This document shows, one piece after another, positions 42,722-44,292 of a stretch of DNA of 51,430 bases (position 1 is the first letter of the stretch; every line of letters begins with the position of its first letter). Position numbers and translations under genes: made by a program. The notes under the pieces are model-generated. The model was not told where the DNA came from and searched no databases. It saw only the letters and a program-made list of their open reading frames with translations. The stretch is from Leptolyngbyaceae cyanobacterium MP9P1.79 (lineage in GTDB: Bacteria > Cyanobacteriota > Cyanobacteriia > JARCMD01). Location of the stretch: positions 1-51,430 of the forward strand of contig JARCMD010000112.1 in the NCBI GenBank assembly GCA_030248885.1, read 5' to 3'.

Positions 42722-42869
42722 CAGCGATCGTTCATCAACAGGGAACTTGTGCAGTAGCAGATCACCTCAATCTTCCACTAAAAAACTCTGATCTATCCAC
42801 ACCAATGCATTACTAATGCGTTGTTTGACTTCTGTCCATTAGTAAAAATGTCCGTTCAGCAGAAACGTA

Positions 42870-42900
42870 AAAGATCAAACAAAATCTGATCTTGATCTTT
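42870..42900. promoter_or_regulatory. Candidate operator: perfect 9-bp inverted repeat over the -35 box
   Basis: AAAGATCAA at 42870-42878 is exactly inverted as TTGATCTTT at 42892-42900, with centres 22 bp (two helical turns) apart. The right arm contains the -35 hexamer TTGATC of the promoter for the toxin-antitoxin-like pair, where an autoregulatory antitoxin would be expected to bind. Confidence 0.6.
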
Positions 42901-42955: not shown

Positions 42956-43519
42956 ATGAATACGGATTTCTCACAAGATGCTTTCTTTAAGTTTCTAGAT
43001 TATCTATCAGATAAAAATCTTGTCAATTCTCAAACTGTGAGAGCTTGGCGTTCAGCGGCTTCTAGGCTGATGACAGACTTGTCTGAGGCAGAAAAGACTG
43101 ATGTACGTACTATAGATCATGATCTAACAGTGCGTAGAGCAGTCAATCGCGATTCAGACTCACTGTCACCGCAGTCTCTCAAGACTTATCAGCGACGTGT
43201 CGAAATTGCAATTGAAGAGTTTGTCAAGCGACAGAGCGATCCAAGTGGATATAAACCACGCGGCTTAAATGGACAATCCCGTATCAAACCAAGTGGTGAG
43301 CGTACAGCACGTCAAGAACGGATGAAACCATCTAGTGTAATGCCTACAGAAAAGCACGAAAGAGAAACATCGCTTACATCTAGTGATTTAACGCTTTCTT
43401 ATCCTCTTCGTTCTGATTTCTTAGCACAAGTTGTCATACCTCGCGATCTAAATGTTATGGAAGCCAAACGGTTGGGGGCATTTTTGCTGACGATCGCAGT
43501 AGATTACCAACCACAGTAA
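42956..43519 (+). CDS. Putative antitoxin with a tyrosine-recombinase SAM-like domain
   Basis: This 187-residue protein has three visible parts. Residues about 5-95 (FFKFLDYLSDKNLVNSQTVR, SRLMTDLSEAEKTDVRTIDH, LSPQSLKTYQRRVEIAIEEF) resemble the four-helix SAM-like/core-binding domain at the N-terminus of phage integrases, but no catalytic recombinase domain follows. Residues 96-145 are basic and disordered. The C-terminus, LSYPLRSDFLAQVVIPRDLN then VMEAKRLGAFLLTIA, looks like a strand plus helix that could bind a partner. The next gene, 13 bases downstream, encodes a RelE-like toxin, so an antitoxin role is inferred. The SAM-like part could supply DNA binding for autoregulation. It is not a recognised antitoxin class to me. 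Confidence 0.6.
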   Translation: MNTDFSQDAFFKFLDYLSDKNLVNSQTVRAWRSAASRLMTDLSEAEKTDVRTIDHDLTVRRAVNRDSDSLSPQSLKTYQRRVEIAIEEFVKRQSDPSGYKPRGLNGQSRIKPSGERTARQERMKPSSVMPTEKHERETSLTSSDLTLSYPLRSDFLAQVVIPRDLNVMEAKRLGAFLLTIAVDYQPQ

Positions 43520-43532
43520 TGGGAGCAAGGAT

Positions 43533-43937
43533 ATGCAGGACAACCCATCTGATAAACAATCTGAAGATGAACAGGCTTCACAGGAAACACAATCTTCCGT
43601 ACAAATAGAGTTGACTCCCGAATTTCAAAGAAATCTTCGTGATCTGGCAAAGCGATATCGCAACATTCGCTTTGATCTTCAGGGTGTAACTCAGGAGTTA
43701 GAAGCTGGCAATTTTGTTGGCGATCGTATTGCTGGAGTGGGTGAAGGCTACGTTATCTTTAAGGTACGAGTTAGGAACAGAGATATTCAGAAAGGGAAAA
43801 CTGCTGGTTATCGCCTGATCTATCAAGTTGAATCCCCTATCTGTATACTATTACTGATGATCTACTCTAAATCAGACCACGAGGATATTACCGCTAACGA
43901 AATTCACGGAATCCTAGATGAGTTCTATCGAACGTAA
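43533..43937 (+). CDS. RelE/ParE-superfamily toxin
   Basis: This 134-residue protein has a polar N-terminal extension (about 28 residues) and then a RelE-like fold: IELTPEFQRNLRDLAKRYRN, FDLQGVTQELEAGNFVGDRI, GYVIFKVRVRNRDIQKGKTA, GYRLIYQVE and the closing LLLMIYSKSDHEDITANEI. Toxins with this GK(S/T)xGYR...YSKS pattern cleave mRNA at the ribosome or, in ParE relatives, poison gyrase; which applies here is unknown. The Shine-Dalgarno GGGAGCAAGG is strong. It is 13 bases behind the antitoxin-like gene, in the usual antitoxin-first order. Confidence 0.78.
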   Translation: MQDNPSDKQSEDEQASQETQSSVQIELTPEFQRNLRDLAKRYRNIRFDLQGVTQELEAGNFVGDRIAGVGEGYVIFKVRVRNRDIQKGKTAGYRLIYQVESPICILLLMIYSKSDHEDITANEIHGILDEFYRT

Positions 43938-44031
43938 TTGAGCACCTGGACAGGATGCTTGAAATTTATGTTTGTGTACATCGCCTTTAAGAGTCAGTTA
44001 TCCTAAATGCATACAGGTTAGGAGTAGGCTG

Positions 44032-44292
44032 ATGAAAGCGATCGAAGCTACAGGCATTGTGGATGAGAGGGGAAATTTGTCTCTTGATCAGCCTGTGGTG
44101 ATGGCTGCTCAGAGCCGTGTACGCGTCATTATCTTATACTCTGAAAAATTTACAGAAGAAGAGGAGCAAGATCCAGACGACACTCCTTTAGAACAAGTAA
44201 AAGCAAGTCTGAGACGGGCTTTAGAAGAGTCAAAGTCGGGTCAAAGAATTCCGATTTCCCAGATGTGGCAAGGAATCGATACCCAGATCTGA
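44032..44292 (+). CDS. Orphan antitoxin-like small protein
   Basis: This 86-residue protein begins MKAIEATGIVDERGNLSLDQ, continues VRVIILYSEKFTEEEEQ, and ends with a helix, SLRRALEESKSGQRIPISQM followed by WQGIDTQI. This is the layout of small cyanobacterial antitoxins: an N-terminal beta DNA-binding part and a C-terminal helix that wraps the toxin. The usual adjacent toxin gene is absent downstream; the nearest toxin is the RelE-like gene 94 bases upstream, in the reverse order from normal. A clear AGGAG ribosome-binding site precedes the ATG. Confidence 0.65.
   Translation: MKAIEATGIVDERGNLSLDQPVVMAAQSRVRVIILYSEKFTEEEEQDPDDTPLEQVKASLRRALEESKSGQRIPISQMWQGIDTQI

What the first reader, a model, noticed from the sequence alone, without database searches (positions are those of the whole stretch)
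42956..43937. Toxin-antitoxin-like pair with an integrase-like antitoxin
A RelE-superfamily toxin is preceded, 13 bases away, by a protein whose N-terminal half looks like the SAM-like core-binding domain of tyrosine recombinases but has no catalytic domain. RelE toxins usually pair with HTH, RHH, Phd/YefM or AbrB antitoxins. Reuse of a recombinase DNA-binding domain as an antitoxin would be a distinct class. What is seen: gene order, spacing, toxin motifs (GKTAGYR, YSKSDHEDI). What is inferred: the antitoxin function.
Basis: partly seen in the sequence, partly recalled or inferred. Interest (0 to 1): 0.78.

Follow-up and report, generated by a model that had tools for sequence, protein, structure and literature searches.

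The report
Toxin module with recombinase-fold regulator gene
A bacterial toxin gene whose usual antitoxin (RelN) sits after it instead of before it has gained, in the usual antitoxin place, a phage-derived gene whose protein looks like the DNA-gripping part of a recombinase and probably acts as an on/off switch for the toxin gene rather than as its antidote.

Summary
The two genes are real and at the stated coordinates, and the fold call is right: residues 1-100 of the first protein (A) model as a tyrosine-recombinase core-binding domain, with no catalytic domain. In related cyanobacteria this RelE family is almost always preceded by RelN (canonical relN-relE, 65 of 73 loci). In 8 loci RelN lies downstream, and those are exactly the 8 with A or an A remnant upstream. 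In at least three of the 8, A is deleted or frameshifted while RelE and RelN stay intact; RelN is kept in all nine related loci. A belongs to phage family phrog_2602, which elsewhere has no toxin beside it. Arrays of GATCTT precede A, precede a stand-alone cyanobacterial A, and precede one group of enterobacterial phage homologues. Best explanation: a derived three-gene module, A-relE-relN, in which RelN is the antitoxin and A an autoregulatory DNA-binding protein. DNA binding, repression and toxicity are inferred, not shown. New variant of a known kind (relNE).

The parts
42871..42899 (+). array of GATCTT half-sites (AAGATC at 42871-42876, GATCTTGATCTT at 42888-42899): proposed operator of gene A
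   Evidence: only GATCTTGATCTT in the 4.9 Mb genome; at -65 to -78 in all 4 loci with intact A, absent in 4 loci with degraded A; 3 forward copies before the stand-alone A of G298 and 2-3 before one enterobacterial phage subgroup
42892..42920 (+). promoter-like site TTGATC-17-TATAGT, -35 inside the GATCTT array
   Evidence: not above chance by itself; same -35/17/-10 layout read by eye in G308 and G172
42956..43519 (+). gene A, 187 aa, phrog_2602 family; proposed autoregulatory DNA-binding protein
42956..43255 (+). N-terminal domain of A: tyrosine-recombinase core-binding (SAM-like) fold
   Evidence: AF2 pLDDT 90, Foldseek 3nrw/2a3v/1z1g/2oxo TM 0.54-0.60
43382..43516 (+). C-terminal tail of A (strand-strand-helix, about 45 aa)
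   Evidence: 84-93% identical among the three relatives compared; a similar tail on other N-termini (L006)
43533..43937 (+). gene B, RelE-superfamily toxin (relE)
43993..44004 (+). GTCAGTTATCCT, conserved promoter/operator-like element in the relE-relN spacer
   Evidence: pattern in 7 of 9 spacers, 0 of 23 canonical relN upstream regions
44032..44292 (+). gene C, RelN antitoxin (86 aa), the probable real antitoxin
   Evidence: NF050107 E 4.6e-34; present in every related locus

Best explanation
A derived, permuted relNE toxin-antitoxin module with an added regulator gene: A-relE-relN. RelE (gene B) is an mRNA-interferase-type toxin; RelN (gene C) is its antitoxin, now downstream and probably transcribed at least partly from its own promoter in the 94-base spacer. 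A, a phage-derived protein with a recombinase core-binding fold, binds GATCTT half-sites over the -35 of its own promoter and so limits transcription of the A-relE operon. Shown here: gene content and order, homology, single origin on the trees, loss pattern, fold model, conserved repeat arrays. Inferred: DNA binding by A, repression, separate relN transcription, toxicity and neutralisation.
For: RelN adjacent, with the C-terminal half as conserved as in canonical RelN proteins. Of 73 loci of this RelE family, 64 (65 counting one whose RelE frame the script missed) have RelN directly upstream; the 8 with RelN downstream are the 8 with A or an A remnant upstream. These 8 RelEs form one side of one branch inside the canonical ones (support 83), and the RelNs likewise (support 59). 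A is reduced to its tail in G039 and G160, frameshifted in G225, apparently 5'-truncated in G309, yet RelE and RelN frames are intact; in G119 the A tail and RelN remain and RelE is gone. So RelN is kept in 9/9, RelE in 8/9, intact A in 4/9. A is a full-length member of phrog_2602, found without a toxin in G298 and in enterobacterial phages, in one subgroup next to the cI repressor. GATCTT arrays accompany A where intact, including the stand-alone A and one phage subgroup, and are absent where A is degraded. A and B are 13 bases apart, overlapping in G172, as in an operon. Precedents: paaR2-paaA2-parE2 (PMC8630535) and toxin-first mqsRA with separate antitoxin promoters (PMC6918082).
Against: No experiment shows DNA binding or repression. 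Core-binding domains hold DNA but usually contribute little sequence specificity (my knowledge). The GATCTT array is not in every phage subgroup (0 exact sites in L074, L079, L091, L140, L156, YP3). Foldseek E-values are above 1; the fold call rests on TM 0.54-0.60 and on all TM>0.5 matches shown being recombinases. The spacer element is not a textbook promoter, and the promoter scan did not report one there.
Confidence: 0.66

Rival explanations
1. One reading: A is the antitoxin of RelE, a new antitoxin class built on a recombinase DNA-binding domain; RelN is a leftover.
For: A sits where the antitoxin normally sits, 13 bases before RelE; it is under purifying selection; most antitoxins bind DNA at their own promoter, so an operator fits this too; the tail is the most conserved part.
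Against: RelN is present in all nine related loci, intact, with conserved C-terminal half; A is deleted or frameshifted in three loci that keep full-length RelE; stand-alone and phage members carry the same two domains with no toxin.
Confidence: 0.1
2. Two-part control: RelN neutralises RelE, and A also contacts RelE (through its tail) or RelN, giving conditional cooperativity at the A promoter.
For: Tail is the best-conserved part of A in this clade (84-93% identical); tight A-relE spacing; many TA complexes autoregulate this way (known biology).
Against: The tail is also present in stand-alone and phage members; no direct test.
Confidence: 0.14
3. A is a passenger: a phage-derived gene that inserted before relE by chance, regulates only itself, and is now decaying.
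For: Lost or broken in at least 4 of 9 loci; stand-alone A exists with its own GATCTT array.
Against: Kept at dN/dS about 0.12 between distant hosts; the A-relE-relN trio stays together in differing neighbourhoods.
Confidence: 0.1

Closest known systems
relNE toxin-antitoxin (ssr1114/slr0664 of Synechocystis; RelN = NF050107)
   Same: same antitoxin family and same type of RelE toxin, side by side on one strand
   Different: order reversed (toxin before antitoxin), RelN set off by an 80-110 base spacer instead of overlapping, extra gene A upstream
paaR2-paaA2-parE2 of E. coli O157:H7 prophage CP-933P (PMC8630535)
   Same: a third gene, a phage-immunity-type regulator, heads a RelE/ParE-superfamily TA operon
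   Different: PaaR2 is described as similar to lambda CI; here the regulator candidate is a recombinase core-binding fold and the antitoxin comes last
toxin-first TA loci with separate antitoxin promoters (mqsRA, PMC6918082; HigBA order)
   Same: toxin gene first, antitoxin with its own promoter (proposed here)
   Different: unrelated antitoxin (MqsA/HigA have HTH domains); no third gene ahead
phrog_2602 phage proteins (function unknown; one subgroup next to cI in lambdoid phages)
   Same: full-length homology to A; GATCTT arrays upstream in one subgroup
   Different: no toxin-antitoxin genes beside them
tyrosine recombinases (lambda Int, integron integrase IntI)
   Same: core-binding domain fold
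   Different: no catalytic domain; extra strand-strand-helix tail

Membership tests
relNE type II toxin-antitoxin | RelN-family antitoxin | tested here: met
   NF050107 116.9 bits, cut-off 70
relNE type II toxin-antitoxin | RelE-superfamily toxin of the RelN-linked type | tested here: met
   nested inside the RelN-linked RelE tree; conserved residues shared
relNE type II toxin-antitoxin | antitoxin gene upstream of the toxin gene | tested here: not met
   RelN lies 94 bases downstream; so filed as a rearranged variant, not as a plain member
relNE type II toxin-antitoxin | toxin inhibits growth and RelN neutralises it | not testable with these tools
   needs expression
phrog_2602 | profile match over full length | tested here: met
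   E 6.8e-14, residues 3-175, profile 4-164 of 173
tyrosine recombinase / integrase | core-binding domain fold | tested here: met
   TM 0.54-0.60 to 3nrw, 2a3v, 1z1g, 2oxo; sequence evidence weak
tyrosine recombinase / integrase | catalytic domain with R-H-R-Y | tested here: not met
   protein ends after a disordered linker and a 45 aa tail
three-component TA with separate transcription regulator (paaR-paaA-parE type) | DNA-binding regulator heads the TA operon and controls it | tested here: inconclusive
   operator-like array and gene order present; binding and control not tested
type II antitoxin (for A) | needed wherever the toxin is intact | tested here: not met
   A deleted or frameshifted in G039, G160, G225 with RelE intact

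The most novel reading that the evidence does not exclude
The core-binding domain of tyrosine recombinases has been turned into a stand-alone, autoregulating transcription factor (phrog_2602) that recognises GATCTT half-sites, used in phage genomes (in one subgroup beside the cI repressor) and, in cyanobacteria, captured as the control gene of a toxin-antitoxin operon.
Probability: 0.5. Interest if true: 0.7.

Novelty: new variant of a known kind. Interest (0 to 1): 0.52.

Why it matters
It offers a testable function and a candidate binding site for a phage gene family of unknown function, some members of which sit next to the cI repressor, and shows how a toxin-antitoxin pair can be reordered and placed under a new regulator. 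It also warns that the gene just before a toxin need not be its antitoxin.

Tried and rejected
Antitoxin role of A: rejected as the main reading because RelN is present and A is dispensable. Second canonical toxin after RelN: none in the window (the next gene lies on the other strand). Plasmid copies of the window's A: no match. First genome-contig scan with A: nothing; an alignment with phage members had no patterns to scan with; the second scan found only two loci, the same as G308 and G309. IMG/VR scans with the cyanobacterial queries: nothing. Whole-A Foldseek against the PDB and BFVD gave no clear match, probably because of the disordered linker; the N-domain alone did better. PADLOC: no defence-system match. 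Literature on recombinase-fold repressors or antitoxins: none found in the library. The idea that the relN spacer element is the ancestral relN promoter carried along: the exact pattern was in 0 of 23 canonical upstream regions, so it is specific to the permuted form or has diverged.

Full report
The observation. Gene A (42956-43519, 187 aa) and gene B (43533-43937, 134 aa) exist as described, 13 bases apart, with the quoted motifs. B is RelE: TIGR02385 E 4.5e-4, PF06296/PF05016 in it and its close relatives, HigB-2 in the PDB.

Gene order in relatives. The RelE family of B is common in cyanobacteria (69 of 194 genomes). I read 73 loci. In 64, and in one more where the script missed the RelE frame, RelN lies directly upstream and usually overlaps RelE: the canonical relN-relE order, as in Synechocystis relNE (antitoxin first; PMC4963859). 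In 8 loci RelN lies downstream; these are exactly the 8 that carry A, or a remnant of A, upstream (window, G024, G172, G308, G309, G225, G039, G160). On the RelE tree the 8 form one side of one branch inside the canonical ones (support 83), and the RelNs behave the same (support only 59). So the order A-relE-relN is most simply a single derived rearrangement. The trees have few columns and many weak forks.

Loss pattern. G024 and G039 belong to one genus and hold the module at one place (next to an SMC-like gene on one side and a TrkA-like gene on the other). G039 has lost a stretch of roughly 0.5 kb that in G024 holds the region upstream of A and its N-terminal part; RelE and RelN remain full length. 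G160 keeps 26 codons of A, with RelE and RelN intact. In G225 A is split between frames. In G309 the first residues of A are replaced by another gene's sequence, which may be a contig artefact. G119 keeps the tail of A and RelN but no RelE. Over nine loci RelN is kept nine times, RelE eight, an intact A four. That is the pattern expected if RelN is the antitoxin and A is an accessory. A caveat: where A and the region upstream of it are gone, RelE may simply be silent.

What A is. By sequence A is a full-length member of PHROG family phrog_2602 (E 6.8e-14), function unknown. Members sit directly after cI in Salmonella phage vB_SosS_Oslo and after a repressor-type gene in related prophages and IMG/VR contigs; others lie elsewhere in phage genomes. 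A stand-alone cyanobacterial member is in G298, 33% identical, with no RelE or RelN of this kind in the 16 kb read. None of these has a toxin-antitoxin pair annotated beside it. AF2 gives an N-terminal helical domain (pLDDT about 90), a disordered linker and a less certain strand-strand-helix tail. The N-domain's matches with TM over 0.5 in the list shown are tyrosine-recombinase core-binding domains: 3nrw 0.60, 1z1g 0.59, 2a3v 0.56, 2oxo 0.54/0.57. E-values there are above 1 and Pfam matches are below cut-off, so the fold is well supported but not proven.

A cis-element that follows A. GATCTTGATCTT stands 65-78 bases before the start of A in all four loci with intact A, and is absent from the four degraded loci tested. 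In the window's 4.9 Mb genome it occurs once, here. The stand-alone A of G298 has three GATCTT in about 30 bases at a comparable position. Enterobacterial phage homologues of the L133 group have two or three, against about 0.0-0.05 per 150 bases in control windows. Other phage subgroups lack the exact hexamer array; in L074, L079 and L080 I see by eye an AAGAC...GTCTT inverted repeat instead. In the window and in G308 a -35-like TTGATC lies inside the array, 17 bases before a -10-like TATA box. This is what an autoregulatory operator would look like; it moves with A and not with RelE.

relE-relN spacer. RelN starts 81-111 bases after RelE in the eight loci (94 in the window). GTCAGYTATYCT recurs in 7 of 9 spacers (the ninth from G119) and in none of 23 canonical relN upstream regions. 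I take it as a candidate relN promoter or operator, by inference only. Toxin-first mqsRA is a precedent for separate antitoxin promoters (PMC6918082).

Mechanism. Best-supported: A limits A-relE transcription by binding GATCTT sites over its -35; RelN, made from downstream, neutralises RelE. Analogue: paaR2-paaA2-parE2, where a CI-like regulator heads a ParE operon inside a lambdoid immunity region (PMC8630535). Shown: homologies, order, single origin on the trees, losses, fold model, element conservation. Inferred: binding, repression, spacer promoter, toxicity.

Verdict. A rearranged relNE module with a recombinase-fold gene ahead, rather than a pair with a recombinase-fold antitoxin. Interesting mainly because it suggests what phrog_2602 does.

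Noticed in passing
G000:C181:3116-3448 (L059): The same genome carries a second RelE of this family with RelN directly upstream in canonical order, so cross-talk between the two modules is possible.
   Followed up: partly
L006:1360-1884 (G002); also G055: A different protein, with an N-terminus that looks like a winged helix, ends in a tail like that of A (LRPDYKVEFELPSDLNTIEAERLAAYIKTLPF); the tail may be a mobile module joined to various DNA-binding domains.
   Followed up: no
L042:7152-7657 (G119): A tail remnant followed directly by an intact RelN with no RelE: an orphan antitoxin left after loss of A and the toxin.
   Followed up: partly
L074, L079, L080, L091 upstream of the phrog_2602 gene: Repressor-linked phage homologues lack exact GATCTT arrays; L074, L079 and L080 carry AAGAC-n-GTCTT inverted repeats, a possible variant operator.
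   Followed up: partly
window 42803-42823: Terminator-like inverted repeat (9 pairs) between the divergent upstream gene and the A promoter.
   Followed up: no
L047:6924-7913 (G160): The upstream part of A is gone; a gene on the opposite strand that looks like a Uma2-family endonuclease now lies next to the 26-codon A remnant.
   Followed up: no
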